Assembly: GCF_028471905.1 (NCBI RefSeq) | Contig: NZ_CP116902.1 | Location: forward strand, 2,392,501 to 2,456,500 | DNA from: Aneurinibacillus uraniidurans | GTDB lineage: Bacteria; Bacillota; Bacilli; Aneurinibacillales; Aneurinibacillaceae | Direction of reading: 5' to 3' | DNA length: 64,000 nt | In this document: piece by piece, positions 38,835 to 63,612 of the stretch | Layout: every line of letters begins with the position of its first letter | Position numbering within the stretch: position 1 is the first letter of the stretch | Translations under genes and position numbers: made by a program | Notes under the pieces: model-generated | The model's input: only the letters and a program-made list of their open reading frames with translations | What the model was told of the DNA's origin: nothing | The model's database searches: none

Positions 38835-38876
38835 GTACGATACTTCCTTTCGGGAAAGGTTCAACACTTTTATCTA

Positions 38877-38930: not shown

Positions 38931-39242
38931 TTAATCCAGGAATGTATCAGGATCAAGGTCAGCGAAGTCATCCATGTCTTCGAATTCGTCCGTATACATC
39001 TCATCTTTTTCGTCGTCTCCGCATGAGTCACAGATAACGATACACAGCTTTGTTTCTCCGACGATTTCAACGGCGTATTCACGCTCAACAGATAAGACGA
39101 TTACCCCGTTGCTTGCTACTCGCGCTTCCACACAGTTTGGTTCCTGCGTGACACGCGCCGTTACTTCAATCTCCCCACGGCAGTTACCGTCATAGTAGGA
39201 AAGCGGTACGACCTCAACAAACTTGATCGTTTCTTTCAACAC
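38931..39242 (-). CDS. cotE: CotE, C-terminal part (gene split by intervening element)
   Basis: 103 codons from GTG 39242, corresponding to the rear of the spore-coat morphogenetic protein CotE: VLKETIKFVEVVPLSYYDG, VTARVTQEPNCVEARVASNG, VLSVEREYAVEIVGETKLCI and an acidic tail (DDEKDEMYTDEFEDMDDFAD). B. subtilis CotE has the same series (VKYVDVIKLRYRD, VLQQPNCLEVTISPNG, VQAEREFLAEVVGETKVV). The N-terminal half is absent here and lies at 56392-56643 in the same orientation. The frame is open upstream to 39254 and beyond, and if the DNA between were removed the parts would join as NNNT-E-TTVLKET without loss. The GTG is not preceded by a ribosome-binding site, so alone it would hardly be translated. 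Known role: CotE directs outer-coat assembly in the mother cell. Confidence 0.93.
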   Translation of the reverse strand: MLKETIKFVEVVPLSYYDGNCRGEIEVTARVTQEPNCVEARVASNGVIVLSVEREYAVEIVGETKLCIVICDSCGDDEKDEMYTDEFEDMDDFADLDPDTFLD

Positions 39243-39276
39243 CGTCGTCTCTCTGAAGAGAGGTTAATTGTAGATA
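39241..39276. other. attL of the cotE intervening element
   Basis: Core ACCgTCGTcTCTcTG (39241-39255) matches ACCtTCGTaTCTgTG at 56399-56413 at 12 of 15 positions, the differing bases in lower case. The inner arm (39255-39276) starts GAAG, includes AGGTTAATTGTA, and is inverted relative to 56383-56404 with 19 of 22 bases matching. The shared TCT/AGA lies at the centre of the inferred attP dyad, so the crossover is placed there. Confidence 0.85.
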
Positions 39277-39281
39277 ACCAC

Positions 39282-39575
39282 TTATAAAAATAAATTCTCT
39301 CCATCTTTTTTCTTTTGTCCCAATGTTTCTTCTTCAAAACTGTATTCATTTATCACTTTTATAATGGAAACAAAGTCTTCTTTAGGTTGGACAATAGTAG
39401 CTAGTTCTTTTCGAAGTTTTATAATATTAGATGGAGTAATAGGACCACGAAATACTGAATTCTGATGATGAAACAAGTACTTCTTACATATCTTGAAAAC
39501 TTTATGTACACGAAGTTCGTTCACGTCATAAAATAGAAAAATATAGTTATAGTTCAACTTCTTTTCAGCCATCAT
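39282..39575 (-). CDS. cas2: CRISPR endonuclease Cas2
   Basis: 97 residues starting MMAEKKLNYNYIFLFYDVNE with the ferredoxin-like core and conserved Asp in FYDVNE, then CKKYLFHHQNSVFRGPITPS and LATIVQPKEDFVSIIKV. Size and motifs fit Cas2, the partner of Cas1 in spacer acquisition. It overlaps the end of cas1 (the TGA of cas1 lies within the ATGATG start). Its stop lies six bases from the attL arm, so it ends the element's left side. Confidence 0.88.
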   Translation of the reverse strand: MMAEKKLNYNYIFLFYDVNELRVHKVFKICKKYLFHHQNSVFRGPITPSNIIKLRKELATIVQPKEDFVSIIKVINEYSFEEETLGQKKKDGENLFL

Positions 39576-40576
39576 TTCAACTCCTTAACACTGAATGGAA
39601 CGAAGGGCTTATTCTCTACAATCAATTTGATTAATTTATACGCATCCAGTTTAATGGCTGTTTTATAACTTACTTTTCGTTTAAGTACAGGGTGCTGGAA
39701 TACGCTATTAAACCGTTCTTCCAATGACGACAAAAAAATCTCCTTGCCCTGTTTATTCAGAAGACAATAATTTAACTTCCGCTCAAAATGCTTCTCAACC
39801 TGTAACTTCCTGTTATTCACATTCTCAAAAATCGTCCGAAATACTATAATCGGTTTAAATACTTCACATAAATCTAGACTTAACGAAAAACGACTTTCAG
39901 ATGGCTCATGCAGAAAGCTAATCGTTTGATTTAAATGGGTCTGGTAAATCTGCGAAACCGTCTTAGAATATAGGATTGAGTTTCCAAGAGACACAAGAGC
40001 ATTCATAGGGTTATCAGGTGGACGCCTTACTCGTTTATTCATAACAAAATCAGCTGGTAAAAAGCTTGAAAAAGAAGTATAAAACTTGCGCCAGATTTCT
40101 CCTTCTATGAACAATACCTGCTTACTATCAAGGTCTTTTGCCAAATATACAGGCACATCTTTGCGAAGCCAATCCAAAAAAGGTTTAAGATCTTTACGAT
40201 CATGCTTGTAATAGTGATACAACACTTGATGGATATTCCCAGCTATTCCCTGGACAATTGCCTTGGCAATATCCATGCGTTTGTTCATATAAGCTTGTGC
40301 CTGCATAACAGTTAGCTTTCCACTTACAAGCTGTTCCTTCGGATAAAACGTTCCGCAATATTGATGATGATAATCAAAGAAATGCACAGTTACTCCAGCT
40401 TTCGAAAGAAACTGAAACAGCTTTGTATTTAAACTCACTTCATTCAAACAGTAAATTTCTTTTATACCCTCAATCGGAATGTACGTATTTCCCTTATCAT
40501 TTCGAAACACTAACGAATGATCTTTCCTCTTTAACTCCCCCATGCTCATCAAGTACTTAGTTGACCGCCCCATCAT
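39572..40576 (-). CDS. cas1: CRISPR integrase Cas1
   Basis: 334 residues from ATG 40576 (GGAAGTGA upstream; the longer frame to 40591 begins before it). Cas1 features: STKYLMSMGELKRKDHSLVF at the N-terminus, EIYCLNEVSLNTKLFQFLSK, the metal-site Glu/His region LVSLGNSILYSKTVSQIYQT, HLNQTISFLHEPSESRFSLS and LDLCEVFKPIIVFRTIFENV. This is the Cas1b type usual in subtype I-B. It works with Cas2 and Cas4 to insert new spacers at the array leader. Translationally linked to cas2. Confidence 0.93.
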   Translation of the reverse strand: MMGRSTKYLMSMGELKRKDHSLVFRNDKGNTYIPIEGIKEIYCLNEVSLNTKLFQFLSKAGVTVHFFDYHHQYCGTFYPKEQLVSGKLTVMQAQAYMNKRMDIAKAIVQGIAGNIHQVLYHYYKHDRKDLKPFLDWLRKDVPVYLAKDLDSKQVLFIEGEIWRKFYTSFSSFLPADFVMNKRVRRPPDNPMNALVSLGNSILYSKTVSQIYQTHLNQTISFLHEPSESRFSLSLDLCEVFKPIIVFRTIFENVNNRKLQVEKHFERKLNYCLLNKQGKEIFLSSLEERFNSVFQHPVLKRKVSYKTAIKLDAYKLIKLIVENKPFVPFSVKELK

Positions 40577-40591
40577 TTCACTTCCTTCCAC

Positions 40592-41086
40592 TCAAATATA
40601 GCAATAATCATAATAAGCACAACGCTTACACTTCTTATCCAAAATTGCCGGAGAAGGTGTAGCCGAAGAACAATAATCGATAATCTCCTGCTCTAACTCC
40701 TGCAACCTTTTTTCTATATCTTCTGTTAGATCCACATAAATAATTGTTTTCTCCTGCTTATTCTTTTCATCGAATTGAATTTTTCCTTTTCGCTCAATCC
40801 CTTTATCCTTTAGTATCTTGAGATAAAAAAGTGTCTGCCACTTTGCAGCTTCAATATTAGCGTCAGATTTTTTATGTTCAATCAAATAATCTGGTGTTAA
40901 TTTGTCAATTTTGATGCTTTCAATTGCAATTTCACTATTTTTGTTTCCCTCTGCCCGTAATTCGTGAAGAATTTTTCCAATACGAACATCTTCACTGTTA
41001 TCTTCGAGGTTGATTTTGTTGGCATGAAGCCAGCATTGTCGTTTGCAATGAAAATAATAATTAACTAATGTACCTGTAACTTTCAT
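40592..41086 (-). CDS. cas4: CRISPR-associated exonuclease Cas4
   Basis: 164 residues. MKVTGTLVNYYFHCKRQCWL carries the first Cys of the Fe-S cluster; the other three are in KKCKRCAYYDYCYI at the end. The RecB nuclease motif is DYLIEHKKSD with E/K and the AAKWQTLFYL helix. Cas4 trims prespacers and selects for the PAM during adaptation. It overlaps cas3 by four bases. Confidence 0.93.
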   Translation of the reverse strand: MKVTGTLVNYYFHCKRQCWLHANKINLEDNSEDVRIGKILHELRAEGNKNSEIAIESIKIDKLTPDYLIEHKKSDANIEAAKWQTLFYLKILKDKGIERKGKIQFDEKNKQEKTIIYVDLTEDIEKRLQELEQEIIDYCSSATPSPAILDKKCKRCAYYDYCYI

Positions 41087-43650
41087 GAAAACAATCCACC
41101 TGCTTCTTTTTCGTACAGCTCATGATCAAATTTTTTAATCCCTGTAACTTTGTCTTCATACATGTAAACGGCCCCTTGCTCAATAAAAAACAAATCCCCT
41201 ATCTGCTCATCATATCGCTTTGGACGTTTATCATACCGATGGCTCGAATCAATATAAGAATATGTGAAGAAACTCATTTTCTCACGGACAGCAGAAAGCC
41301 TCACCTGCCTCTCTGCATACTCCATTGAATCAGCAGTAAGCAACTCCTTATACTGCTGCCATACCATTTCACCAGCTAATTCAGTTCCATCTTCAAATCG
41401 AATGACATGCGAAACGAATAACGTAAAAGAGCGATCTTCAATAAGCTCCATATGTTTCGCTACGCGCTTAAAATCAAGTCTTTGAACTTTTTCCGTAAAA
41501 ATAGCTGCATTTTGTTTGTTTTTCTCCTTCTTTTGTTCCAGAAGCCGGGTAAAACACATCTCATAAAAATCCTTAAAGCGCTTATTAACTAAATATTCTT
41601 TGAAATCAGGATGAAGTAGATCATATTCTAGACGCCAATCATTCCGGTAAATCTGTGAAGCGCCGTCAAGATTAAAAAAATAGGCTCGACAATCGGAACG
41701 CAAGCATGATCGATTGATCCGCCCCAAGAACTGTTCCTCACTATCAAGTAGAGAAATATCCTTAAAGCCTACATCCATATCGATGTCAACTCCAGCTTCA
41801 ATTACCTGGGTTGTAATAACAAGCACATCTTTAACCTTAAGCATCTTATTTTCATCTACCGCACCAAGTTCATCAAGAATTTTGCGGCGAAAATAACTAC
41901 TATCATCCCCGGTAATTTCAATGATTCGTCCCTCGTATCTCTCAGATGCCAAACGATAAAATTCTCGGGCTGTTTTCTTTTTAATAAACTCAATGAGAAT
42001 ACGACTAGGTCCACGCTCTTCCCGAACTTTCTCAATATCCAACAGCAACTCATCAAGTGTATACTCAGTTTTATTCAATAATGAAAAATGTAGATGGACA
42101 CGTCCTTTAAAAAGAGGATGTTGAAAATATATCTCAGGATCTTTTACTAATTCTACCTGCTTGGTCGGCTCTTGAAGCAACTGATCTAATTTCGGAAGCG
42201 TTGCAGACATAATAATAATCTTCATATTCATCCACTCGCTGAAACATTGTAAGAAACGAATAATTTCAACCCATCGATCATTCCGATAACTCTGTACCTC
42301 ATCAATAATAATTACACTATTGCACAAGTGGGCAAAAGCCAGATTAGATTCTCTACCGGTTCCAAATAAATAATGAAAAAAATTCACATGTGAAGTAATC
42401 GTAACTGGATACTGTAGCATCTGCCGATTCAGCAACTCTTCGCGATAATTAATTGTAGATTCTGCATCCTTTTCTTCCTTCTCTGTCACAATAGGGGTAA
42501 CAGAATTCACAACAGATATACGGTAACTATTTCGAACCTCTTCGTCCTCGAATGCCCTCTGCAATGTTTGATTGGTCTGTTCAATTAATGTATTAAAAGG
42601 AAATACATACACAATCTTATTCAACTTCTCATGGTGATTAAGCAGTTGAAGTGCCAGATTTATGGACATATTCGTTTTGCCACTACCAGTCGGAGCTTCG
42701 AGATAGTATATTTGTTTATCAAGATTCTGCAAAAGCCGTTCTTCTGCCTCTAAAAAAATGTCCGAGCGCAGCTTGTTAATGGCACTATCCGCAAACACAT
42801 TTTTATCTTTTTTATACGCTTCAATCCCTTGATAAATTTTCGTGTTCCGATAAGCCGTATATAATTTTTCCTTATCTGCTTCCTTTACGTATTTCCATTC
42901 AGGAGCTTGATCTTCGTTCTCATATGTATATGTTGCATAAAAATCTGCAGCAACGAGAGCTGAATACAAAAGCCTTGCTAGTATATAAAAGGAATATGCT
43001 TCATGACCATCTTCATAACGATATGTCTGTTCACTAAAAATGATCAAATTCAGCTCGTTTCGTACACGCTCACTTTCCTCATAATACTTTACATAGCCAG
43101 GAAATCCTCTTACTCTTTTTTGAAGACGCTCTAACTTGTTCTGAAAATCCGCTTCAGATAAATCCTCCAAGTACGTATGATGCCGAGAGATCACATATGC
43201 AAACGTATAAAGAACATGCCGTAAAAACCCCCGAACCCCATCTTCTTTAACCACTTCTACCGCTAGTGAAAAAATATCAACATACAAAAGTGCCGATAAA
43301 AGAGCGTGATGAGAGTCATTTAACTCCTCCTGGTCTGTATGCTGTATTGTTCGATTTCGCATCTTTACTTTTTGAAAAACCGGATTAACTTTTCCGATAT
43401 CATGCATGTAAACAGCCTGCTTAAACATCGTAATAATTAATTGGTGACTAGCTTCGTCCAGTTTTTCTCCATCAAAAGTAAGAGCAGAAACAATGGATTG
43501 AAGTGCTTCTTCTACCCCATTTTCTTGCAACAGCTTATCAAAAAAGAACTGCGTTAAATCAGAATGTTGCTCCAGCGTTTCGTTTTCTTGCTTACCAACA
43601 TGGGCCCAGATGTGATCACTTTCTCGTATATATTCAGCAATGGATATCAT
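41083..43650 (-). CDS. cas3: CRISPR-associated helicase-nuclease Cas3 (HD-fused)
   Basis: 855 residues from ATG 43650 (GATAGGGGGATTATC upstream; the longer frame to 43737 overlaps cas5). The HD nuclease domain is N-terminal: EQHSDLTQFF, AVYMHDIGKVNPVFQK, DSHHALLSALL. The SF2 helicase follows: APTGSGKTNMSINLALQLL (Walker A), SVIIIDEVQSYRNDRW (DEVQ box), IIMSATLPKLDQLL, VLVITTQVIEAGVDIDM. Cas3 is recruited by Cascade to unwind and degrade target DNA. The domain order is the normal HD-helicase fusion. Confidence 0.94.
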   Translation of the reverse strand: MISIAEYIRESDHIWAHVGKQENETLEQHSDLTQFFFDKLLQENGVEEALQSIVSALTFDGEKLDEASHQLIITMFKQAVYMHDIGKVNPVFQKVKMRNRTIQHTDQEELNDSHHALLSALLYVDIFSLAVEVVKEDGVRGFLRHVLYTFAYVISRHHTYLEDLSEADFQNKLERLQKRVRGFPGYVKYYEESERVRNELNLIIFSEQTYRYEDGHEAYSFYILARLLYSALVAADFYATYTYENEDQAPEWKYVKEADKEKLYTAYRNTKIYQGIEAYKKDKNVFADSAINKLRSDIFLEAEERLLQNLDKQIYYLEAPTGSGKTNMSINLALQLLNHHEKLNKIVYVFPFNTLIEQTNQTLQRAFEDEEVRNSYRISVVNSVTPIVTEKEEKDAESTINYREELLNRQMLQYPVTITSHVNFFHYLFGTGRESNLAFAHLCNSVIIIDEVQSYRNDRWVEIIRFLQCFSEWMNMKIIIMSATLPKLDQLLQEPTKQVELVKDPEIYFQHPLFKGRVHLHFSLLNKTEYTLDELLLDIEKVREERGPSRILIEFIKKKTAREFYRLASERYEGRIIEITGDDSSYFRRKILDELGAVDENKMLKVKDVLVITTQVIEAGVDIDMDVGFKDISLLDSEEQFLGRINRSCLRSDCRAYFFNLDGASQIYRNDWRLEYDLLHPDFKEYLVNKRFKDFYEMCFTRLLEQKKEKNKQNAAIFTEKVQRLDFKRVAKHMELIEDRSFTLFVSHVIRFEDGTELAGEMVWQQYKELLTADSMEYAERQVRLSAVREKMSFFTYSYIDSSHRYDKRPKRYDEQIGDLFFIEQGAVYMYEDKVTGIKKFDHELYEKEAGGLFS

Positions 43651-43690
43651 GATAATCCCCCTATCAAAAAAGAAGGGGGCATCCCCTTCC

Positions 43691-44455
43691 TTATAAAAAG
43701 TATAAAAATCGACCTTCTCCGGTATAGATTGGTGCATCCTCTTCTAAACTTGCCAACTTACGGTTCGTAAATCCAACTTCTTTATACTCATATGAATTTA
43801 ACTGTGTATCCAAAGCTACAGGAATCTGTTCTTTATAGGAATGAAAACTTGCACTTCCATCCGTTGTGCCGCCTCTCTTCTGATACGTAACATGTTCCGT
43901 ATAAAATAATGAATCAATCCGCTCTGTACGCTCCTGCCATTCAAGCGCAAGCATTCGAATTGAAGAAAGTGAAGCCGGATGATCATTCTTTCCAAGGTAC
44001 GGCAAGTAGACACTTTCTCCTGCTTCTAGCATTGCAGCCAGACGCGAAAAAATCTCTGTGCCATTATCCAGCACATAAACTGTCCAGTGTGGATTTTCAA
44101 TCCATTGTTCGCGAACAACAAGATTGTTTCCTTCTTCCTGACTTGCATAACCTACTGAGTTATTAAAAATCTGGATTTTTTTCGCAAAATATCCACGATC
44201 CCCATGCGGTACAATGCTTACAGGTAGATCACGAAGCAAACGATAAAATTCCGGGTACAAATTCTTTTCGTTTTTGCCATTAAGCTGAATATCTCGATAT
44301 TGGGTTGCGTATCCACCCAGACCAAGGATAGCTCCTAGCAAACCATACAACGCTATTTTATGAATATGACTATATGTAAAGTATGCATTTGCGTTCACAT
44401 CAGGCTTCTTAAAAAATGCTGTTTTTCCGGTGAGTTCAAAAGCGATTGCTTTCAT
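43691..44455 (-). CDS. cas5: Cas5 (Cas5h/I-B type)
   Basis: 254 residues beginning MKAIAFELTGKTAFFKKPDV, the Cas5 N-terminal RAMP pattern, followed by HKIALYGLLGAILGLGGYAT, LPVSIVPHGDRGYFAKKIQI, REQWIENPHWTVYVLDNG and GESVYLPYLGKNDHPASLSS. Cas5 caps the 5' handle of the crRNA in the I-B Cascade complex. It is 14 bases downstream of cas7 (44470). Confidence 0.9.
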   Translation of the reverse strand: MKAIAFELTGKTAFFKKPDVNANAYFTYSHIHKIALYGLLGAILGLGGYATQYRDIQLNGKNEKNLYPEFYRLLRDLPVSIVPHGDRGYFAKKIQIFNNSVGYASQEEGNNLVVREQWIENPHWTVYVLDNGTEIFSRLAAMLEAGESVYLPYLGKNDHPASLSSIRMLALEWQERTERIDSLFYTEHVTYQKRGGTTDGSASFHSYKEQIPVALDTQLNSYEYKEVGFTNRKLASLEEDAPIYTGEGRFLYFL

Positions 44456-44469
44456 TGATTCACATCCTG

Positions 44470-45432
44470 CTATTCAACTTTTGTACGAGTAAAAATATTT
44501 TTTCTAGTCCATCCTTCTTTAGATAGAAACCCTGCTGTCGTATAAATATCTGTCGTGTACGGATTATAAAATACTTCTACCGTCTCGATTCGATCAGCTG
44601 CTGCAGACAGTACTTCTTCTACCCGTGTAATATCAATCAGATTTCTTTCATCTTTTCGAAAATCAATATACGTATCCAGATGTGGCAAGTACAGATTTTC
44701 CCCTTCTTTGCACGTCACAAATAGCGCAAACTCATTCTCACAACCAGCCTTGCTATTTGTATTTAATGCGGTGGCCCCAACAAGTGCCGCTTCCTTAAAT
44801 TTTAAATAAGCTTCTTCTGTATACCCTTCAAAATCAGGAAGCAATCGAGTAAACTCATCATAATGATTAGGATTGACAGAGAAAGGATAAAAATAATGTG
44901 CTTCATTACTTACAACTTTCTTTCCAAGGCTTGAGGCATCCGCTTCTTCTTTAGCAGAATTACGAAACGGTGATAAAATATCTTGTACCTCTACAAGAGA
45001 ATCCTCATATTTATTAAATCCCTGACCAATTTGCACAATACCCGTCAACCCGATGTTTTGCTTTTTAACTGCAAAAGTAGCGCCAAAATTCAGAACATCA
45101 ATTGTAGAAAAAAGATTCCCTAGCACTTCTTGTGATGAGGTCTTATCAGAGATCTCTGTATCAAATAATTCGTTATATCGCTCTGCCAATTCTTTTGGCT
45201 GAATTTTGTTTTTTTCAGCTCCTTTTTGATTTAATATGTATGATTTAAAATACAGCACTTTCTCTCCCTGCGATACCCAAAGACGCTTCATGCTATATTT
45301 CAAAGCTTTGTCACTTCCAAAAATGGTTCCATCACTGCATGTCTTAGGCCGTCCCGTAAAGTCTGCATTCCAATTTGCCATCCGGCTCGCAATACCAATT
45401 ACCCCATACACTCGCTTATTCATCTTTGCCAT
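44470..45432 (-). CDS. cas7: Cas7 (Csh2-type backbone subunit)
   Basis: 320 residues: MAKMNKRVYGVIGIASRMAN, ADFTGRPKTCSDGTIFGSDK, ALKYSMKRLWVSQGEKVLYF and STIDVLNFGATFAVKKQNIG, LTGIVQIGQGFNKY, then NSKAGCENEFALFVTCKEGE. This is the Csh2/Cas7 family of subtype I-B, which forms the helical backbone covering the crRNA spacer. It starts 14 bases after cas8. Confidence 0.93.
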   Translation of the reverse strand: MAKMNKRVYGVIGIASRMANWNADFTGRPKTCSDGTIFGSDKALKYSMKRLWVSQGEKVLYFKSYILNQKGAEKNKIQPKELAERYNELFDTEISDKTSSQEVLGNLFSTIDVLNFGATFAVKKQNIGLTGIVQIGQGFNKYEDSLVEVQDILSPFRNSAKEEADASSLGKKVVSNEAHYFYPFSVNPNHYDEFTRLLPDFEGYTEEAYLKFKEAALVGATALNTNSKAGCENEFALFVTCKEGENLYLPHLDTYIDFRKDERNLIDITRVEEVLSAAADRIETVEVFYNPYTTDIYTTAGFLSKEGWTRKNIFTRTKVE

Positions 45433-45446
45433 TCTGCTTATCCCCT

Positions 45447-47303
45447 CTATTCCTGTTTTTGCAACAACATATTTTGCGCCAGCAGCCCCGCCAGCAGCAT
45501 ATCCCGATTCACTCCCTTGATATTCCCTTCAGCTGTATATCCCATTATCATTGACATTGCATTTTTAAAGCGCAGGCTTCCCATAGAAATAGCATGATTA
45601 TACACAGTAAAAAGCTCATCCAACCTTCTTTTAAGTTGCTGTCCTGTTTTCGCCTGGAGAATAGGCTCACAAAGACCAAATGTTTTTTTACTTGTTTGTG
45701 ATTGAATAAGCAAATAATAGGCAAGTTGTCCAGCTAAGAAATAAAACTCTTCATCACTCTCACATACGACCTGCTCTTTAGCAAATAGCTTATGCTGTAG
45801 AGCGGAAACAGTAGACTCAATATAGTCTGCCACCTGATAACCCCTTTCTATATCTAAATATTGCAATAATGAAAGACGCAAATTATATGCATCGGCTATC
45901 TGTTTCAAGTATAATCCCTTTGCAGTCTTGGCAATCTGCTCTTCAATTAATTGTCTCGTTACTTTGTCAATTAGCGGACGAATGGTAATGTTCGTACCTT
46001 TATACAGAAAATCGTACCAAGCTTGTCTGCTCATTAAAAATAAGGAGAGCATCCCAGCGGTAAAAACATTTGTTTTTATATCAGGATCAGCATGTAAAAA
46101 TGAATCCTTCATTCTACCCGCAAAAAACAATGACCCAATAAGCCCATGAAGCTGTCCCGGTTTTGTTACATCCGAATACCGTTTAATAAGCCTCTGCCCA
46201 TTTTCCTCTTCTGTAATCTTAAGCACATTCTTATAGGTAAACTTGATTATATCCGGCATACGAAACGGAACATTCTCAAAAAATTCAATACTTCCCCCGG
46301 AATCCAACCGAATGTGATACCGTGATGGAAGCTGTACCTTTGATTTTTCCAGCGAAAAAGCCCCTTCATAGGGAATTTGATGCTCACGAAACTTCCCCTG
46401 ACTCTCCAACCATTTATATAAGTCTTTAGTAGCCAGTGCATCTTCAAGCTGCACTCGAATCGGGACTGCTGTCTGCATTGTTTTCAGCTCTAGATATGGT
46501 TTTTTTGCATTCATGCTAATATCATAAGCTGGCAACCCTACTATATTTTCATTTTTTAGCTCATTAAACTTATTATCATTAAAAATTTTCGGCAGGATAT
46601 ATACAAGGTATTCACTTTGATACACACTTTCTTCTGCTTCGAAAAAAACTTTTACATATGTAGAAAAAGGAACTTCTTTTTTATACGACTCAAGAAAGGT
46701 AAGAAACTCAGAGAGATACACTTCCCAAAAGTTGTATGCTTGTCTGCTGATTGCGGCACGGAGTTCTGAATCAATATACTGCATAACGTCAGAATACCGT
46801 TCTTGAAAAAATTGATCTCTGTTTTGTAAAATTTGCTTTTTACTCAGCTCTTTTTTTGAATTTATCGGATACATATTGAGGAGCTTCTCACTGGCTTGTT
46901 CTAAAAGCTGATAGAAGTTTTGAAGATGTAAAAGTAATTGTGAGGTAGAGAACCCCTTTTTGTCTCCAATCAAGAGATCCACTTTCATGAAAAAAGTTAA
47001 TGCATTTGTACTATGAATCTTTTTTGCCGGAAGATCAACAGCTTTATTCATACTGTCATTTAACACACTACTGTAGTAATCTCTAGTTTTAAACCATTGC
47101 AAAAGCTCCTTATTAGCAACAGCTGTATCCTGCTTACGATGAATAATAAGCGAACGGTCAGAAATTTCAGCTATATTTTCTTGTAATGTTTTATCCAGAG
47201 CAAATTTAATGTAGATTCCTTCTTTTAGCTCGTAATTATCCATCACAATTTCAGGATGCTGGCTTACTTCTCTTTTAAATTGCTGGACGAGATCCTGAAG
47301 CAT
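45447..47303 (-). CDS. cas8b: Cas8b large subunit (Csh1-like)
   Basis: 618 residues between cas6 and cas7, the slot of the I-B large subunit. MLQDLVQQFKREVSQHPEIV, then DLLIGDKKGFSTSQLLLHLQ, KVFFEAEESVYQSEYLVYIL, and a C-terminal helical part with LCEPILQAKTGQQLKRRLDE and YNHAISMGSLRFKNAMSMIM. Cas8 recognises the PAM and recruits Cas3. The position and length carry the assignment more than the motifs, as the family is highly divergent. Confidence 0.82.
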   Translation of the reverse strand: MLQDLVQQFKREVSQHPEIVMDNYELKEGIYIKFALDKTLQENIAEISDRSLIIHRKQDTAVANKELLQWFKTRDYYSSVLNDSMNKAVDLPAKKIHSTNALTFFMKVDLLIGDKKGFSTSQLLLHLQNFYQLLEQASEKLLNMYPINSKKELSKKQILQNRDQFFQERYSDVMQYIDSELRAAISRQAYNFWEVYLSEFLTFLESYKKEVPFSTYVKVFFEAEESVYQSEYLVYILPKIFNDNKFNELKNENIVGLPAYDISMNAKKPYLELKTMQTAVPIRVQLEDALATKDLYKWLESQGKFREHQIPYEGAFSLEKSKVQLPSRYHIRLDSGGSIEFFENVPFRMPDIIKFTYKNVLKITEEENGQRLIKRYSDVTKPGQLHGLIGSLFFAGRMKDSFLHADPDIKTNVFTAGMLSLFLMSRQAWYDFLYKGTNITIRPLIDKVTRQLIEEQIAKTAKGLYLKQIADAYNLRLSLLQYLDIERGYQVADYIESTVSALQHKLFAKEQVVCESDEEFYFLAGQLAYYLLIQSQTSKKTFGLCEPILQAKTGQQLKRRLDELFTVYNHAISMGSLRFKNAMSMIMGYTAEGNIKGVNRDMLLAGLLAQNMLLQKQE

Positions 47304-47318
47304 ACACCATCGCTCCTC

Positions 47319-48011
47319 TCATATGTATGTAGCCAGACAAAATCCCCCACCTACTGCAGAATTTTTTTCTGCAAGCCCGCTTCCCATACTAATAAAAGCA
47401 AGCTTTTGTGATTGCTGATCATCCTGAATTGTTATTTTCGCTTTGTTCCCAAGTAATTTTATTCCTTTATACGAAATAGCAATCGGACGCTGATTCAAGA
47501 TTTCAATTCGCTGAATAAAAGAATGAGTAAATCGCTCTTCTCCAAACAGATTCTTATATTTCTTTTCGGCATTAGCTTGTAACCGTTCTTCTAATGTTGT
47601 CCAATCGTGCTCAACGAACCATGGTGCTCCTTTAACTGTTATGAAAAAAGGAGTAACTGTATATAATTCTTGAATGGGGCGTTGTGGCATACGGGTGATT
47701 TCCGCAGCTAAAAGTTGAAAATTATCATCGTTTACTTTTTTAAGCAAATGCTTTACCTTTGATAAAAAACCTTGTTTTAGACTACGAATCTTGTATATGT
47801 ATACTTTCCCTTCTTTATAAACACCATCTTTCTCAAAAGGATATAAATTATCAAAAACATAGTGTTTGTATTGGTTTTGTTCATGAAATACTTTTAAGTT
47901 TTCATCGAGATAAAGAGCAGCATTAATCCATTGACCAATTTTTTCACTGCTAAAACTAAAATGAATATTTTTTCGTAAAAACACTGTTACCGTAAGCTGT
48001 TCAAAGACCAT
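47319..48011 (-). CDS. cas6: CRISPR endoribonuclease Cas6
   Basis: 230 residues. Start MVFEQLTVTVFLRKNIHFSF, mid region VTPFFITVKGAPWFV, and a C-terminal glycine-rich loop GSGLAEKNSAVGGGFC, the signature of Cas6, which cuts the repeat RNA to release crRNAs. It is the first gene of the cas operon, with AAGGGGGGG then TTAG before the ATG at 48011, and 100 bases from the array. Confidence 0.85.
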   Translation of the reverse strand: MVFEQLTVTVFLRKNIHFSFSSEKIGQWINAALYLDENLKVFHEQNQYKHYVFDNLYPFEKDGVYKEGKVYIYKIRSLKQGFLSKVKHLLKKVNDDNFQLLAAEITRMPQRPIQELYTVTPFFITVKGAPWFVEHDWTTLEERLQANAEKKYKNLFGEERFTHSFIQRIEILNQRPIAISYKGIKLLGNKAKITIQDDQQSQKLAFISMGSGLAEKNSAVGGGFCLATYI

Positions 48012-48024
48012 CTAACCCCCCCTT

Positions 48025-48053
48025 ATATAAAAATGTTTTTATCATTTTTATAT
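48025..48053. repeat. Inverted repeat just upstream of cas6
   Basis: ATATAAAAATG TTTTTAT CATTTTTATAT, perfect 11-bp arms 14 bases upstream of the cas6 ATG. Could be an operator for the cas promoter or a leader hairpin. No regulator gene is close by. Confidence 0.6.
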
Positions 48054-48111
48054 GTTTTACCATAAAAAGAACTCATTGAAACTATTTGCGTAATTACAAA
48101 TAAGCAAAATA

Positions 48112-50438
48112 AGATAAATACACCATGTGTTGCTGTTCGAGTAGGAGTATATGTGAGGTTCGCCTAGAGTTGAAGATAATTTAAATACACTATGTGTTGC
48201 TATTCGAGTTTTTCCGCTTGTTTAGAACCTAACTTCGCATGAGCCATTTAAATACACCATGTGTTGCTGTTCGAGACGCCTGGCAGTTAAAACAGACACC
48301 AATCCATTTGGATTTAAATACACCATGTGTTGCTGTTCGAGCTAGCTAAAAAGAAAATGGAGACTGGCGGCCAGAATTTAAATACACCATGTGTTGCTGT
48401 TCGAGGCTGCTTGTAAAGTTTGTAGCCCATTGACCGTCATAGATTTAAATACACCATGTGTTGCTGTTCGAGGGTAACTTCTAACGTCATTCCGTCATCC
48501 TGATACCTATTTAAATACACCATGTGTTGCTGTTCGAGGATGGCTAACGCATTGCTGCTTTTGCAGGAAATCGAATTTAAATACACCATGTGTTGCTGTT
48601 CGAGCTTAAAATCGCCGCCCCAGGTAAAGCCATACTTCTATTTAAATACACCATGTGTTGCTGTTCGAGCAAAGCACGGGTAGGATTGTATGCTGTACAA
48701 GAATATTTAAATACACCATGTGTTGCTGTTCGAGGGGAAAAGGAGCGCTCCAGACAACGATCATAATTGGATTTAAATACACCATGTGTTGCTGTTCGAG
48801 ATTAGGTTTGGTGTGTAGTAGAGATATGTACCACATATTTAAATACACCATGTGTTGCTGTTCGAGCTTAGAAACTAATAGAATACAAGGTTACCATAAG
48901 GAATTTAAATACACCATGTGTTGCTGTTCGAGGCACAGGCAGTCCAGGAATATTCCCCTCGTTAGTTAATTTAAATACACCATGTGTTGCTGTTCGAGCC
49001 TGTTCCAGGCGAGCAGCATAAGTTGCTCGATGGGATTTAAATACACCATGTGTTGCTGTTCGAGGCATTAAAGCAAACTGCAACCCCCCTTTTTACTACA
49101 TTTAAATACACCATGTGTTGCTGTTCGAGAATACATACATACGTTTTACCCCTTAATTCTTTTTACATTTAAATACACCATGTGTTGCTGTTCGAGTTTC
49201 GCTTCTTCAAGCGATCTTCGTTGAGAAGCTATTTAAATACACCATGTGTTGCTGTTCGAGAGAAACGGAAGTCGTGGAATTTATCACGATCATGCTATTT
49301 AAATACACCATGTGTTGCTGTTCGAGTCAGGAATGCTAGTGGAATAGCCGTTGCAAACGCAAATTTAAATACACCATGTGTTGCTGTTCGAGCCAACCCA
49401 TTTTCGATTTCACTGATCTTTCTCTGTGATTTAAATACACCATGTGTTGCTGTTCGAGGTGAAAGCTTTGCTCGCCTTCAACAAGAGGCACATTATTTAA
49501 ATACACCATGTGTTGCTGTTCGAGTTCGTGCAGCCGATGACCTCCCTGCAGCTAGGGTGTATTTAAATACACCATGTGTTGCTGTTCGAGTGCTTCGTAT
49601 CGTCTTCATTTCGTTACTCCTCCCAGATTTAAATACACCATGTGTTGCTGTTCGAGGAAGCAATACAAGACCCGGAACCGACACGGCAACCATTTAAATA
49701 CACCATGTGTTGCTGTTCGAGGAAGGTTTGTGTTGCCATACGTCGCCCGACTGCGAATTTAAATACACCATGTGTTGCTGTTCGAGGACCGGCACGGACA
49801 GCAACCGTTGTTGTCATCCCATTTAAATACACCATGTGTTGCTGTTCGAGTTTGTCCAGGATATATTTTATTTGGATTTTTACCGAATTTAAATACACCA
49901 TGTGTTGCTGTTCGAGCGTCCCTGATACATAACTCGTAATATCACCAACACTATTTAAATACACCATGTGTTGCTGTTCGAGGCAGAAGTAGCTGCAGCT
50001 TCAGAAGTCGAGTTCTAATTTAAATACACCATGTGTTGCTGTTCGAGCGGCATGTTAGAAACAGATGATGATGTTCTTTCAGCATTTAAATACACCATGT
50101 GTTGCTGTTCGAGAAAATTAATTAAGTGCATAAAGTGGTTGAATTGCTAATTTAAATACACCATGTGTTGCTGTTCGAGTGATGAGCGCACGGTTCGTCG
50201 TTCTCTGGATCGTCTATTTAAATACACCATGTGTTGCTGTTCGAGATAGTCCTTAAAAAGAAAGTCTACCCCTTCTCTGGATTTAAATACACCATGTGTT
50301 GCTGTTCGAGCATGTACAGAGTTTGATTAGCCTAGGTCCTGGTTATTTAAATACACCATGTGTTGCTGTTCGAGAAAGTAGATAAAGCGAGCAAATTGAG
50401 TAATTTTAATTTAAATACACCATGTGTTGCTGTTCGAG
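48112..50438 (-). CRISPR. Type I-B CRISPR array, 36 repeats and 35 spacers
   Basis: Repeat of 30 bp, plus strand beginning ATTTAAATACACCATGTGTT and ending GCTGTTCGAG, every 65-67 bp, spacers 35-37 bp. I counted 36 repeats. Those at 48112 and 48179 carry mismatches; all others look identical. The degenerate end is next to cas6, so transcription probably runs right to left on the minus strand from a leader beyond 50438. On that strand the repeat ends ...GTATTTAAAT, giving a crRNA 5' handle ATTTAAAT of the 8-nt kind typical of I-B. Protospacers cannot be named without a search. Confidence 0.97.
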
Positions 50439-50611
50439 CCTATATAAATCAAGCTTTCTAAAAAATAATCTATCCTTAAACCCTAGAAAAATCAACACGT
50501 TTATCTATTTTTACCAAGCTCAAAGTCCTGTCTTATTTTTATAAAGAAAACTACCGATGAACATTTGAAACAACAGGCAAAACAGCAAAGTCGACTGAAA
50601 GAGAGGTTGGT
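50439..50611 (-). promoter_or_regulatory. Putative CRISPR leader
   Basis: A/T-rich, non-coding, beside the conserved end of the array. The last repeat ends at 50438; poly-A/T blocks such as CTAAAAAATAATC and TTATTTTTATAAAG fit a leader on the minus strand. Confidence 0.6.
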
Positions 50612-50668: not shown

Positions 50669-52159
50669 TTAGTTTTTGAACCAGCCTACTGGCTCTACTT
50701 GCATGTTAATGTTAATCTGCTTCACTTCTGTAAACTCTTCAAGGCCAAACGTTCCGAGTCCACGACCGATGCCGCTCTGCTTGTAACCGCCCCATGGTGC
50801 TTCATTGTATGTCGGGTGGTAGCTGTTAATCCATGTAATACCGGAGCGCAGCTTCTTAATTACGCGCATTGCTTTTGCTCCATCCAGTGTGAACACGCCG
50901 CCTGCAAGACCGTATACTGTTCCGTTCGCCAGTTCAATTGCTTCCGCTTCATCTTTGAACTTCTGCACCGCAAGCACAGGTCCGAAAATCTCTTCCTGTA
51001 CAATACGCATGTTCGGTTTTGTATCCACGAAGATCGTCGGCTCAACAAAGTATCCGTTTTCAAGACCATTCTCCATAATGCGATTTCCACCGCATACGAG
51101 ACGCGCCCCTTCCTGTTTGCCGATCTCGATATAACCGAGTACTTTTTCCATATGCGCTTTGCTAACAAGCGGTCCCATTTCTGTGTCAGGATGGTCGCCA
51201 GCGCCTACTGTAATCTGCTTCGCACGCTCAACAAGACGCTCTACGAATTTGTCATGAATGCTTTCTTCTAGTAACAGACGGGAACCTGCGGAACATACTT
51301 GTCCCTGGTTGCAGAAAATACCGAACAGCGCATAATCTACCGCTGTCTCGAAGTCTGCATCTGCAAATACGATATTCGGAGATTTACCGCCGAGTTCAAG
51401 CGAGATTTTCTTGATATTTCCTGCAGCCGCTTTCATGATGCTGCGGCCTGTTGCTGTACCGCCTGTAAATGACACTTTATCAACAAGATGGCTCTCGGCC
51501 AGCTCATTCCCAACTGTCGGGCCTGCACCCATTACCATGTTAATTACACCGTGTGGAATGCCCACTTCTTCAATAATTTCAAACAGCTTAATCGCTGTAA
51601 CCGGCGTTACTTCAGATGGCTTAAATACAACCGTATTACCCGCTGCAAGAGCCGGAGCAATTTTCCATACACCCATGAGGAGCGGGAAGTTCCACGGTAC
51701 GATCAATGCACATACACCAACGGCTTCACGTACAACCATTGCCTGCATTGGGTCTGCTACATGGTATGTTTGTCCATCCGGTTTTGTTGCCAGACCTGCA
51801 TAGTAGCGGAAGCAAGCCGCCGCATCTGCGACATCGAATTCTGCTTCACGAAGCGGTTTGCCGTTATCAAGTGTTTCTAAGCGGGCAATTTCTGCCGCAT
51901 ATTCTTCAAGCTTATCTGCAATCGCGAACAAATAGCTAGCTCGCTGTACAGCTGGCATCTCCGACCAGCTACCTTCATCAAATGTACGACGTGCCACTTC
52001 AATCGCGCGGCGTGCATCTTCAACGTTTCCTTCTGCTGCTTTTGCAATGACTTGACCGTTGGCTGGACTCACAATGTCACGTGTTTCTCCACTTTGTGCA
52101 TCTACCCATTTCCCATCTACATACATTTTCAGATCAAGCACTTGTGTTACTGTTGACAT
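50669..52159 (-). CDS. NAD-dependent aldehyde dehydrogenase (betaine-aldehyde dehydrogenase-like)
   Basis: 496 residues, normal ALDH length. YVDGKWVDAQSGETRDIVSP at the start, VPWNFPLLMGVWKIAPALAA and GNTVVFKPSEVTP for the cofactor site, FTGGTATGRSIM, the general base in LELGGKSPNIVF and the catalytic Cys in FCNQGQVCSAGSRLL. It oxidises an aldehyde to the acid; closest in feel to GbsA/AldA types, but the substrate is not determined. Its position inside the cotE element as cargo is unusual. A sigma-54-type promoter (52282-52299) and a 35-bp palindrome (52351-52385) lie upstream. Confidence 0.93.
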   Translation of the reverse strand: MSTVTQVLDLKMYVDGKWVDAQSGETRDIVSPANGQVIAKAAEGNVEDARRAIEVARRTFDEGSWSEMPAVQRASYLFAIADKLEEYAAEIARLETLDNGKPLREAEFDVADAAACFRYYAGLATKPDGQTYHVADPMQAMVVREAVGVCALIVPWNFPLLMGVWKIAPALAAGNTVVFKPSEVTPVTAIKLFEIIEEVGIPHGVINMVMGAGPTVGNELAESHLVDKVSFTGGTATGRSIMKAAAGNIKKISLELGGKSPNIVFADADFETAVDYALFGIFCNQGQVCSAGSRLLLEESIHDKFVERLVERAKQITVGAGDHPDTEMGPLVSKAHMEKVLGYIEIGKQEGARLVCGGNRIMENGLENGYFVEPTIFVDTKPNMRIVQEEIFGPVLAVQKFKDEAEAIELANGTVYGLAGGVFTLDGAKAMRVIKKLRSGITWINSYHPTYNEAPWGGYKQSGIGRGLGTFGLEEFTEVKQININMQVEPVGWFKN

Positions 52160-54019: not shown

Positions 54020-54181
54020 TTATGTTTCCTTCTCTTGTTCCACAAAAATTCCATCTTGGTTTTCGCTGACTATTACCTCTATATCACTTCCAAATTTCTC
54101 TTCATAAAAAAGTTGAATCTGCTCTCTGAAATACACAACAATCGGCTCATCTCCATATTCCACCTGTAAAATGCGGATCAT
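54020..54181 (-). CDS. Small protein upstream of the recombinase, candidate directionality factor
   Basis: 53 residues from ATG 54181 (GCGGGTGATGAAT upstream). MIRILQVEYGDEPIVVYFRE continues QIQLFYEEKFGSDIEVIVSE and ends QEKET. Acidic, beta-alpha-beta-like. Not recognised. Recombinases of this class need a small directionality factor for excision, often encoded next to the recombinase gene and about 50-90 residues long, so its position and size make it a candidate. This is inference from placement alone. Confidence 0.6.
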   Translation of the reverse strand: MIRILQVEYGDEPIVVYFREQIQLFYEEKFGSDIEVIVSENQDGIFVEQEKET

Positions 54182-54256
54182 ATTCATCACCCGCTAGTAT
54201 ATATATGAAGCCGACTGTGCACACATATCTTGTACGCCAAATCAATTGTGTGCGGA

Positions 54257-55990
54257 CTAGAAAGTAAATCTCGCAAGCTCTTCGCGCAGCTGCCGTGAAA
54301 TACGCGCCATATCCTCAGCGTTCGCCGCAATCTCCTGAACGGTTGCCGACTGTTCCTGTGCAGAGGCCACAACTTCTTGTGTAGCTGACGCCGCCTCTTC
54401 TAGAATCGAGGTAATTTCCTCAATATGCACAAGCACATTCTCTACGGTTGACTCAATCTGGTTAAATGACTGTGCCATTCCGGATGAATCTTCCTCTGCT
54501 TCTTTCATACAAACCGCCATCGCATCGAGCGCCTGCCCACCTGCATGTACAAGCGTAATTTGTTCCGTCACCGCCTGCTCGCTTGTTCGCATAGATGACA
54601 CCGTGTGCTCCATCTCCAGCAGAATGTCCTGCACAAGTTCTGTGATCTGTCTAGCTGCTGCATTCGACTGCTCTGCTAACAACCGCACTTCGTCGGCTAC
54701 CACAGCAAACCCGCGTCCGTGTTTCCCTGCGCGAGCCGCTTCAATTGCTGCATTCAATGCAAGCAAGTTCGTCTGACTAGCAATCCCCGTAATAGCGGTT
54801 ACAATATCGCCAATTTGTGAAGAACGCTCGGTCAATCGCTCCATCGTTTCACACGCCTGCCCGACAGCATGTGAAATCGTTGGCATGTGTTCTACGGCCT
54901 GCCGAATCGCTTGCTGACCCTGTCGGGAAATATTTGCTGCCTGCTGTGTTCGATGATTGTTCTGCTCAATCTGCTTTTTCCCTGTACCAACGACATCGCG
55001 TGCCTGCTTCATCATCTGAACGATGTCACGAGCCCGTTCGTTCTGCTGTACACTTCCATCCGCTACTTCCTGAATGGTACATGCAACAGACGCAGCACTT
55101 GCTTCCGAGTACTCCGTTGCAATTGATAATCTTTCTGCATCTGCTGCTACTCCGTCCACACTCGTTTGGACATTGCGCAAAAATCCGGCCAATGTAGTCT
55201 CCATTAGTTGAAAAGCGTGCGAGAGCCTTCCCACTTCATCCTGGCTATTATCCGCTATCGTTATCTTTTGTTTCACGGGCGAAGAAAAGTCTCCCGCAGC
55301 AATTTTCTCAGCCGTTTCCGTTACGTCCTGTAATGGACGCAAACTTCGGCGGGCCAACCAGGAAAACAGCAGCGTTGACACACACACAAGCCCCACACTT
55401 GTCGGTACAAATGTCGGAATATTGTCGATGATGGCTCCCTGAACAAGATCATTCACAAAAGAAGCACTCATATCCATCTCCAATACACCAATCACCTGGC
55501 CTGTTTGATCTCGAATAGGTGCTACAGCAGGCAAATAGTCTCCATATTTTTCATCATGCACCAGATGCATACTCAGCGTCTCTCCCTTCATGACAGCCGC
55601 CACCTGTTCAGCACTAAGCGCTTCGGTCGGCTCGCCAATCGGGGAGGCAATCTTCGAGTCTTTCGGCTGTCCATCTAGCAATATGCGCACTTGATTATTT
55701 CGTACTTCTACCGTTGTGATATACAAAGCTCCAGTTTTTTCACGTAGATCATTTAATTCGCGGCGTAGTTTCCAGTAGGTCTCATCGTCAGCTGGCCGTG
55801 CAAGAAATTTCTTATACGTTTCCGTATCCATATGTGCTACCGTATTCTCAGCCATCCGGCTGCTATATTCCGCTACTGTCTGCTCCACTGCTCGATTCAC
55901 GCTGCGGTACGAAAAAACCTCACTGATTCCCACTACAAAAATAATGAGTGACGCAGATAGCAGGAATAGCTTCCGTCGCAAACTCATCAA
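54257..55990 (-). CDS. Methyl-accepting chemotaxis protein
   Basis: 577 residues with an N-terminal transmembrane helix ([20 protein letters not shown]), a roughly 150-residue periplasm-like sensory region with [16 protein letters not shown], a second helix ([20 protein letters not shown]), a HAMP domain ([20 protein letters not shown]) and a long cytoplasmic signalling coiled coil with the hairpin tip [40 protein letters not shown]. It senses an extracellular signal and controls CheA. GAGGAGGGCTGGTGAG precedes the start, TTG 55990 or ATG 55987. It lies inside the cotE element, between the recombinase and the attR. Confidence 0.93.
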
Positions 55991-56092: not shown

Positions 56093-56242
56093 TCATTCCT
56101 GAATAAACAATTCGTCTTCTGCATGAAAGGAGTCGTCATGGTAGGTCTCTACCATGATTTCGCGGCAATTTGTACACTCCGCACGGTTGCGTTCCCAGCT
56201 AACCAACTCATTCCCGCAAGAAATGCACTTATCTTCTGTCAT
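56093..56242 (-). CDS. Small zinc-ribbon protein, 49 aa
   Basis: ATG 56242 with AAGGAGGCGTATTTACG upstream. MTEDKCISCGNELVSWERNR, then AECTNCREIM and an acidic tail. The paired CxxC-x16-CxxC is a rubredoxin-like zinc ribbon. Not assigned to a family. It is the first gene inside the element at the attR side, and a second candidate for an accessory excision factor, although such factors rarely carry zinc ribbons. Unlisted by length-limited ORF calling. Confidence 0.65.
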   Translation of the reverse strand: MTEDKCISCGNELVSWERNRAECTNCREIMVETYHDDSFHAEDELFIQE

Positions 56243-56338
56243 ACGTAAATACGCCTCCTTTATAGTTGTTAGGGTGTCTGCATCGCATATGTTTTATGCT
56301 TGTTTATGTATAATGCATATAGTATGCCAAAAATAAAA

Positions 56339-56370
56339 CGGAAGCCTGCCATCTTTCTGGCAGACTTCCG
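56339..56370. terminator. Hairpin near the attR end
   Basis: GGAAGCCTGCCA..TGGCAGACTTCC, strong stem with one mismatch, 13 bases inside the right arm. Could block read-through between cotE and the element. Confidence 0.75.
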
Positions 56371-56382
56371 CTTCTATACTAT

Positions 56383-56413
56383 TATATACAATTAACCTAC
56401 CTTCGTATCTGTG
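56383..56413. other. attR of the cotE intervening element
   Basis: Inner arm 56383-56404 contains TACAATTAACCT at 56387-56398 and ends CTTC, mirror of the attL arm; core ACCtTCGTaTCTgTG at 56399-56413. The exchange point is TCT at 56408-56410. Position 56407 and below (minus-strand GATACGAAGG..) is element sequence by this reading. Confidence 0.85.
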
Positions 56414-56643
56414 TTGTTGTTGTACGAATACCAGATGTTGAATTCATACGATCCGCTTACCTCGACAGCTTCTCCGATTTTGTTCGCCCGGTATGTGTGG
56501 TTAATCACCCAGGCTCCCAAAATCGTGACTGCTTTGTGGGATGGGGTAACGGTGTGAGTGGTTTCGGAAAACTTACGACCACGACCACAAACCGCTTTCG
56601 TAATAATTTCCCGGCACTGCACTTCTTTATTTGTACTCGACAT
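56392..56643 (-). CDS. cotE: CotE, N-terminal part (gene split by intervening element)
   Basis: 83 codons from ATG 56643, with GGAGGAGGTAACAACC upstream. MSSTNKEVQCREIITKAVCG, RGRKFSETTHTVTPSHKAVT, ILGAWVINHTYRANKIGEAV and VSGSYEFNIWYSYNNNT follow the CotE N-terminal half (REIITKAVVAKGRKFTQ, ILGGWIINHKYDAEKVG, EIEGYYDINVWYSYADNT). After codon 78 the reading enters element sequence (DTKVG, then TAA). Only the first 78 residues belong to CotE. Neighbour order ricA-cotE is as in B. subtilis. As it stands the gene can only make a truncated coat protein lacking the C-terminal half. Confidence 0.95.
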   Translation of the reverse strand: MSSTNKEVQCREIITKAVCGRGRKFSETTHTVTPSHKAVTILGAWVINHTYRANKIGEAVEVSGSYEFNIWYSYNNNTDTKVG

Positions 56644-56683
56644 ATGGTTGTTACCTCCTCCATCCAGCATTTCCCTACATGTG

Positions 56684-63267: not shown

Positions 63268-63297
63268 TTGGTGAAAGTTTTTCCCAAAGTATGGTGG

Positions 63298-63504
63298 AGG
63301 AGTGGGATCGGGTGGGGCCTCGTCACTTCGGTATGCTCGCTACGAAGTAGGAACTTTCCGCTTCAGGTGCCAGATGAACTCGCCCACAAAAGAGAACCCA
63401 CGATGTATTTACATCGAAGGATTGTGGGCAAAAACCCGTTCACCTGACCCCTTCCGCTGGGGATCGCATACAGGCGTTCCGTTGCCCCACCCGATCCCAC
63501 TCCT
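63298..63504. repeat. 207-bp element with perfect 21-bp inverted ends
   Basis: The left end begins AGGAGTGGGATCGGGTGGGG and the right end is its exact reverse complement through 21 bases (63298-63318 and 63484-63504). The middle can fold further (CCCACGATGT..ACATCG around 63398-63440). No open frame of note and no other copy in the window. It could be a miniature inverted-repeat element or a structured RNA gene. Confidence 0.6.
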
Positions 63505-63612
63505 AACACACTTTGAGTAAACACCATCAAGTAATATCAAGATGCTGAGCTTCGCTATGCAGGTAAAAATAAGGAAGCAAGTTTCCAAAAACCAGTTGCG
63601 ATCGAATACATT

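What the first reader, a model, noticed from the sequence alone, without database searches (positions are those of the whole stretch)
39282..50438. Complete type I-B CRISPR-Cas system carried as cargo on a sporulation-gene intervening element
All adaptation (cas1, cas2, cas4), interference (cas3, cas5, cas7, cas8b) and processing (cas6) genes and a 36-repeat array lie between the two att sites, with cas2 ending six bases from an att arm. Such elements usually hold phage-derived genes. An immune system riding on a gene-splitting element would stay in vegetative cells and spores, but be lost from the terminal mother-cell lineage if excision occurs, which costs nothing. The element could also move the system to other cotE genes.
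Basis: partly seen in the sequence, partly recalled or inferred. Interest (0 to 1): 0.95.

Follow-up and report, generated by a model that had tools for sequence, protein, structure and literature searches.

The report
CRISPR immunity on a spore-gene-splitting element
In this soil bacterium (Aneurinibacillus) a complete CRISPR-Cas immune system sits inside a 17-kb DNA element that splits the spore-coat gene cotE exactly where the element's own recombinase could cut it out again, so the cell may carry its immunity on DNA that it discards in the doomed mother cell while keeping it in the spore.

Summary
Window 39282-50438 is a complete type I-B CRISPR-Cas locus (cas2-cas1-cas4-cas3-cas5-cas7-cas8b-cas6 and a 36-repeat array). 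It lies inside a 17,158-bp element between two GA cores (39250-39251 and 56408-56409) that splits cotE in the Glu codon of NNNT|E|TTVLK. The element ends form a 21-GA-21 attP with 17/21 palindromic arms; none of 200,000 random junctions reached 17. Joining the flanks on GA gives an intact 184-aa CotE.

Four other Aneurinibacillus-type genomes have cotE split at the same dinucleotide, each with an orthologous large serine recombinase (63-85% identical) and a small upstream ORF, my candidate directionality factor. Six family members with unsplit cotE lack that recombinase. Cargo differs in every element; only this one carries cas genes. Both cotE halves are under purifying selection (omega 0.12), so the gene is probably rebuilt by excision in the mother cell. 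Excision itself is inferred.

Known precedents: skin, SP-beta, vfbin, gin (carries restriction-modification), a CRISPR array in C. difficile skin, type III-A CRISPR-Cas on SCCmec. I found no report of a cotE element or of complete CRISPR-Cas on a sporulation-gene element. Verdict: new variant of a known kind.

The parts
38931..39251 (-). 3' half of cotE (C-terminal part of CotE), ending at the shared GA core
   Evidence: PF10628 match 70-175; rejoins in frame with the 5' half
39250..39251 (-). GA core dinucleotide of the att site on the cotE 3' side
39252..39272 (-). 21-nt attP arm TACAATTAACCTCTCTTCAGA (read on the minus strand)
   Evidence: 17/21 symmetric with the other arm; similarity to the sister element's end stops at 39272
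39282..39575 (-). cas2
   Evidence: TIGR01573, Cas2b 9e-33
39572..40591 (-). cas1, I-B type
   Evidence: TIGR03641 8e-115
40592..41086 (-). cas4
   Evidence: Cas4b 1e-54
41083..43653 (-). cas3 (HD nuclease plus helicase; an upstream start at 43737 is possible)
   Evidence: Cas3b 6e-280
43691..44455 (-). cas5b
   Evidence: TIGR02592 1e-39
44470..45432 (-). cas7b
   Evidence: PF05107 1e-31; Cas7b 1e-35
45447..47303 (-). cas8b (large subunit)
   Evidence: PDLC01507 Cas8b 6e-144 over the full length
47319..48011 (-). cas6b
   Evidence: PDLC01784 1e-81
48112..50438 (-). CRISPR array, 36 repeats and 35 spacers; the degenerate distal end lies next to cas6, so leader and newest spacers are inferred to be at the 50438 end
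50439..50610 (-). AT-rich putative leader
   Evidence: sequence; inference from the position of the degenerate repeats
50669..52159 (-). aldehyde dehydrogenase (other cargo, shared with the sister element in G004)
   Evidence: betaine-aldehyde-dehydrogenase-like; 98% identical in L014
52396..53946 (-). large serine recombinase of the element
   Evidence: PF00239, PF07508, PF13408; CcrC/CcrB and XisF models below cut-off; orthologues in all five split-cotE genomes
54020..54184 (-). small acidic ORF (54 aa counted from the second ATG), candidate recombination directionality factor, directly upstream of the recombinase
   Evidence: conserved in all five elements; a similar ORF precedes distant serine recombinases and the genome's second one
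54257..55990 (-). methyl-accepting chemotaxis protein (other cargo)
   Evidence: PF00015, PF00672; also in the G004 and G001 elements
56093..56242 (-). small zinc-ribbon-like ORF, shared with G004
56335..56374 (-). intrinsic terminator just inside the element, after the truncated cotE 5' half
   Evidence: 17-pair stem
56387..56407 (-). 21-nt attP arm TACGAAGGTAGGTTAATTGTA (read on the minus strand)
56408..56409 (-). GA core dinucleotide on the cotE 5' side
56408..56646 (-). 5' half of cotE (N-terminal part of CotE)
   Evidence: PF10628 match 1-74; rejoined protein 184 aa

Best explanation
The window holds a developmentally excisable cotE-intervening element of 17.2 kb. Its core is a large serine recombinase, a small upstream ORF that probably acts as directionality factor, and a palindromic attP split over the two ends. 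It inserted by recombination at a GA dinucleotide inside cotE, a spore-coat morphogenetic gene needed only in the mother cell. During sporulation the recombinase plus the small protein most likely excise the element in the mother cell and rebuild cotE; the forespore keeps it. The element collects cargo on both sides of the core. In this lineage the cargo includes a complete, apparently functional type I-B CRISPR-Cas system, placed between the aldehyde dehydrogenase gene and the att arm. The system therefore acts in vegetative cells, is inherited through the spore, and is discarded only in the terminal mother cell. SHOWN by sequence: complete cas locus and array, att structure, identical insertion site in five genomes, association with the recombinase, purifying selection on the split gene, variable cargo. 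INFERRED: excision, its mother-cell timing, the role of the small ORF, CRISPR activity, horizontal acquisition of the cas module.
For: Complete cas locus and array. Split cotE rejoins on GA to a full-length CotE in all five genomes; attP arms 17/21 symmetric here, in G004 and in G007, against 0 of 200,000 random junctions. The recombinase orthologue (63-85%) is present in exactly the five genomes with split cotE and in none of six family members with unsplit cotE. Purifying selection on split cotE between two split genomes: dN/dS 0.118, like the neighbouring gene (0.135); recombinase 0.084. Small upstream ORF conserved in all five elements. Sister element G004: same site, recombinase, chemotaxis receptor and ALDH, but no cas genes, and no cas remnant in the sequenced parts of any other cotE element read. 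Cas module G+C 0.376 against 0.472 for the rest of the element. Spacer s10 matches 30/36 the endolysin gene of a prophage in G004, with mostly synonymous-type differences. Mechanism precedents: gin with GirC and GirX (PMC5595907), C. difficile skin (PMC5025042).
Against: No read-level or experimental evidence of excision. The sigma-E consensus scan upstream of the small ORF does not beat shuffles, so mother-cell control of the recombinase is not shown. The recombinase is not at the very end of this element. No exact spacer target was found, so CRISPR activity rests on intact genes and uniform repeats. The arms of the G006 element are only 9/21 symmetric in the register used.
Confidence: 0.8

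Rival explanations
1. Dead insertion: the element permanently inactivated cotE, the host does without full-length CotE, and the CRISPR locus simply sits in a fossil element.
For: No excision data; some elements are damaged by IS elements (G004: an insertion between the small ORF and the recombinase).
Against: Both cotE halves stay in frame and under strong purifying selection in split-split comparisons (dN/dS 0.118 for G000/G004, 0.064 for G001/G006); the recombinase is intact and constrained in all five; all five rejoin exactly.
Confidence: 0.08
2. Ordinary integrative element or defective prophage that happens to use cotE as attB; excision is part of its transfer cycle in vegetative cells and not tied to sporulation. 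The CRISPR locus is a mobile defence island, as on SCCmec.
For: Cargo is variable and includes defence and metabolic genes; a related recombinase is the apparent integrase of a prophage in G004; the recombinase resembles SCC Ccr proteins; recombinase and cotE similarities are partly discordant (G006/G007 recombinase 79%, cotE 80%; G001/G006 76% and 88%), which hints at transfer.
Against: Persistence of split cotE in most of the genus, with constraint on the split gene, implies regular rebuilding in sporulation; no conjugation or phage structural gene was recognised in this element.
Confidence: 0.1
3. The CRISPR-Cas locus is the older resident and the att-like ends and split cotE are secondary or coincidental.
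For: cas2 ends only 9 bp from the att arm.
Against: Relatives with intact cotE have no cas genes at this place; the sister element has the att arm, recombinase, receptor and ALDH without cas; G+C of the cas module differs from the rest of the element.
Confidence: 0.02

Closest known systems
gin element in gerE of Bacillus cereus ATCC10987 (PMC5595907)
   Same: Non-prophage element splitting a mother-cell sporulation gene; serine recombinase (GirC) plus a small directionality protein (GirX, 42 aa); short consensus shared by the two gene segments; carries a defence system (restriction-modification); variable cargo between strains.
   Different: Target gene gerE rather than cotE; three recombinases; no CRISPR-Cas mentioned; excision was shown there and is only inferred here.
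C. difficile skin element in sigK (PMC5025042; CRISPR 6 array listed in skin in PMC6563280)
   Same: Sporulation-gene intervening element excised in the mother cell by a serine recombinase and a directionality factor; contains a CRISPR array.
   Different: Prophage-like, in sigK; PMC6563280 lists an array within skin and I saw no cas genes reported there. Here a complete cas operon and the genome's only array of this repeat ride on the element.
SCCmec type V(5C2&5) with type III-A CRISPR-Cas (PMC10434264)
   Same: Complete CRISPR-Cas carried on an element excised by Ccr large serine recombinases; the recombinase here is nearest to the CcrC and CcrB models.
   Different: Type III-A rather than I-B; not a developmental gene-splitting element; attB not in a sporulation gene.
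SP-beta in spsM and vfbin in spoVFB (PMC4191935; PMC10747680)
   Same: Serine-recombinase excision rebuilds a split mother-cell gene during sporulation.
   Different: Prophage or prophage-like content; other target genes; no CRISPR-Cas reported in the passages read.

Membership tests
Sporulation-gene intervening element | Splits a sporulation-specific gene whose halves rejoin in frame | tested here: met
   CotE halves rejoin on GA to a 184-aa protein in five genomes
Sporulation-gene intervening element | Encodes a serine recombinase and has att sites with a shared core and inverted arms | tested here: met
   Recombinase domains; 21-GA-21 attP, 17/21 symmetric
Sporulation-gene intervening element | Excised during sporulation in the mother cell, as a circle | not testable with these tools
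   Needs DNA from sporulating cells; purifying selection is indirect support
Sporulation-gene intervening element | Recombinase or directionality factor under a sporulation sigma factor | tested here: inconclusive
   Conserved block upstream of the small ORF, but the sigma-E consensus score is not above shuffles
Type I-B CRISPR-Cas | cas1, cas2, cas4, cas3, cas5, cas7, cas8b and cas6 in one locus with an array | tested here: met
Type I-B CRISPR-Cas | Active interference and spacer acquisition | not testable with these tools
   Only weak spacer matches: 30/36 to a prophage endolysin gene in G004, 28/36 to phi29-like phage endolysin genes
Prophage (skin or SP-beta type) | Phage structural or lysis genes inside the element | tested here: not met
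   Every sizeable ORF between 39250 and 56409 was assigned to a non-phage family; the small ORFs had no significant family match
SCC element (Ccr) | CcrA, CcrB or CcrC recombinase above the curated cut-off and attB at rlmH | tested here: not met
   Best CcrC model 175 bits against a cut-off of 900; attB is in cotE

The most novel reading that the evidence does not exclude
The element is a sporulation-coupled vehicle for adaptive immunity: in each sporulating cell the mother cell excises a 17-kb circle carrying cas genes, array and recombinase, and mother-cell lysis releases it for uptake and recombinase-driven insertion into the intact cotE of neighbours, while the forespore keeps the heritable copy.
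Probability: 0.08. Interest if true: 0.9.

Novelty: new variant of a known kind. Interest (0 to 1): 0.72.

Why it matters
Sporulation-gene intervening elements are usually described as prophage remnants, with gin as the non-phage exception. Here a family of cotE elements with a conserved two-gene core and exchangeable cargo recurs in one genus, and one member carries a whole adaptive immune system. Immunity that is removable in a terminal cell line but retained in the germ line can be tested directly, as can whether defence cargo stabilises such elements and whether a lone CRISPR-Cas locus can move between species through a developmental att site. The library searched held no report of a cotE-intervening element or of a complete CRISPR-Cas system on any sporulation-gene element; subscription journals are mostly absent from that library.

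Tried and rejected
(1) Core CAGA: a first rejoining on the literal shared CAGA gave a frameshifted cotE; in codon register the core is GA, which gives intact CotE in all five genomes. (2) Sigma-E promoter upstream of the small ORF-recombinase pair: visible conservation, but the score is not above shuffles. (3) Internal att arms that would mark CRISPR as a separately integrated module: TACAATTA/TAATTGTA occurs at the two ends and once more, inside cas3, so no module boundary was found. (4) Spacer targets: three 22-nt spacer cores gave no hit in viral contigs; phage matches E 0.001-0.7, none convincing. (5) Donor of the cas module: nearest Cas8b only 42% (G116) and 39% (G364); five plasmid hits below 30%; Cas1 not found in viral contigs.
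Full report
OBSERVATION. HMM scans identify, all on the minus strand in operon order, cas6b, cas8b, cas7b, cas5b, cas3, cas4, cas1 (I-B type) and cas2. Cas8b has no Pfam or NCBIfam match but a full-length PADLOC I-B match (6e-144). The array has 36 repeats of 30 nt and 35 spacers of 34-37 nt. No repeat copy exists elsewhere in the 3.85-Mb genome. The two degenerate repeats lie at 48112 and 48179, next to cas6, so the leader and newest spacers are probably at the other end (inference).

THE ELEMENT. cotE is split: its 3' half is at 38931-39251 and its 5' half at 56408-56646. In codon register both halves share the dinucleotide GA of a Glu codon. Sequences inside the element next to these cores form a 21-GA-21 attP, TACAATTAACCTCTCTTCAGA-GA-TACGAAGGTAGGTTAATTGTA, whose arms match at 17 of 21 positions; 200,000 random junction pairs from the window gave a maximum of 16. 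The element is 17,158 bp and holds, besides the CRISPR locus, an aldehyde dehydrogenase, a large serine recombinase (PF00239, PF07508, PF13408), a small acidic ORF, a chemotaxis receptor and a zinc-ribbon ORF. An intrinsic terminator lies just inside the element after the truncated 5' cotE. cas2 ends 9 bp from the att arm.

RELATIVES. The genus is Aneurinibacillus: contig lengths of G001, G006 and G007 equal those of A. aneurinilyticus ATCC 12856, A. thermoaerophilus L 420-91 and A. tyrosinisolvens LL-002. In the genus, G002, G003 and G005 have intact cotE; G000, G001, G004 and G006 have it split, as does G007 in another genus of the family. All five splits are at the same GA and all five rejoin to a 184-aa CotE. 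Recombinase orthologues (63-85%) occur in exactly these five and in none of the six family members with unsplit cotE. The small ORF upstream of the recombinase is conserved in all five, and a similar ORF precedes more distant serine recombinases, among them the second one in this genome; it is my candidate directionality factor. Cargo differs each time: recombinase and receptor only in G001 (4 kb); receptor, recombinase and a 98% identical ALDH in G004 (11 kb); at least 46 kb in G006 if its two contigs are collinear, with catabolic genes and a phage-spike-like cluster. No cas trace is found in the parts of the other cotE elements that were read; the middle of the G007 element is not assembled. 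The sister element G004 aligns with the window up to 39272 and again from 50642, so the CRISPR-Cas module occupies precisely the stretch between the att arm and the ALDH.

ORIGIN OF THE CAS MODULE. Its G+C content is 0.376, against 0.472 for the rest of the element. In two genome searches (300 relatives and 399 class members, overlapping) no Cas8b above 42% identity was found. The module is therefore probably a horizontal acquisition by this element. Loss in G004 cannot be excluded: its corresponding 664 bp contain repeat-like sequence.

FUNCTION. Between G000 and G004, both split, cotE has dN/dS 0.118, compared with 0.135 for the neighbouring gene, 0.119 for the receptor and 0.084 for the recombinase. 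A permanently broken gene would not be expected to stay in frame and constrained on both sides. With the known behaviour of skin, SP-beta, vfbin and gin (PMC5025042, PMC4191935, PMC10747680, PMC5595907), the best reading is excision in the mother cell by the recombinase with a directionality factor. This step is inferred. A sigma-E promoter for the small ORF could not be established. CRISPR activity is also inferred. One spacer (48735) matches at 30 of 36 positions the endolysin gene of a prophage in G004, with mostly synonymous-type changes; another (49851) matches phi29-like endolysin genes at 28 of 36. Neither is strong alone.

COMPARISON. gin is the closest precedent: a non-phage element in gerE with a restriction-modification system, a serine recombinase and a 42-aa directionality factor. 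The C. difficile skin element contains a CRISPR array (CRISPR 6; PMC6563280). SCCmec V carries a complete type III-A system that is excised with the cassette (PMC10434264). None of these is a complete CRISPR-Cas locus on a sporulation-gene element, and literature searches returned no cotE-intervening element. The finding is a new target gene and a new kind of cargo for a known kind of element.

VERDICT. Observation confirmed; interpretation supported in its anatomy and plausible in its dynamics. Interest 0.72.

Noticed in passing
window 1-32488: Low-G+C (0.35-0.43) region ending beside mutL in a tyrosine integrase (31343-32488) and an ImmA-like protease ORF (30645-31175); looks like a separate integrated island.
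   Followed up: partly
L091 and L015 (A. thermoaerophilus, contig C47): The cotE element there, at least 46 kb over two contigs, carries baseplate-hub/spike-like genes (Phage_GPD, DUF4280), a DNA/RNA endonuclease and a Ser/Thr kinase: an injection-system-like cluster as cargo of the same element family.
   Followed up: partly
L104 (G004:C1:2340000-2356000) and L095 (G000:C1:1750000-1766000): A related serine recombinase (42%) is the apparent integrase of a prophage in G004; at the same site in G000 the recombinase and its small upstream ORF remain and no phage genes were recognised next to them. A G000 spacer resembles this prophage's endolysin gene.
   Followed up: partly
window 37377-38867: Large ORF beside cotE matching the phage phiEco32-like COOH-NH2 ligase family (PF14395), conserved next to cotE throughout the genus.
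   Followed up: no
L016:11620-11640 and L088:3330-3345: In G006 the last codons and stop of the recombinase gene (LYN-stop) are themselves the attP arm TACAATTAG, and G007 looks the same: the recombinase is flush with the att site, probably the ancestral layout before cargo came between them.
   Followed up: partly
window 63268-63611; L014:8163-8510 and L014:2083-2235: A sequence at the window's end recurs twice inside the G004 cotE element, probably an IS-like repeat.
   Followed up: no
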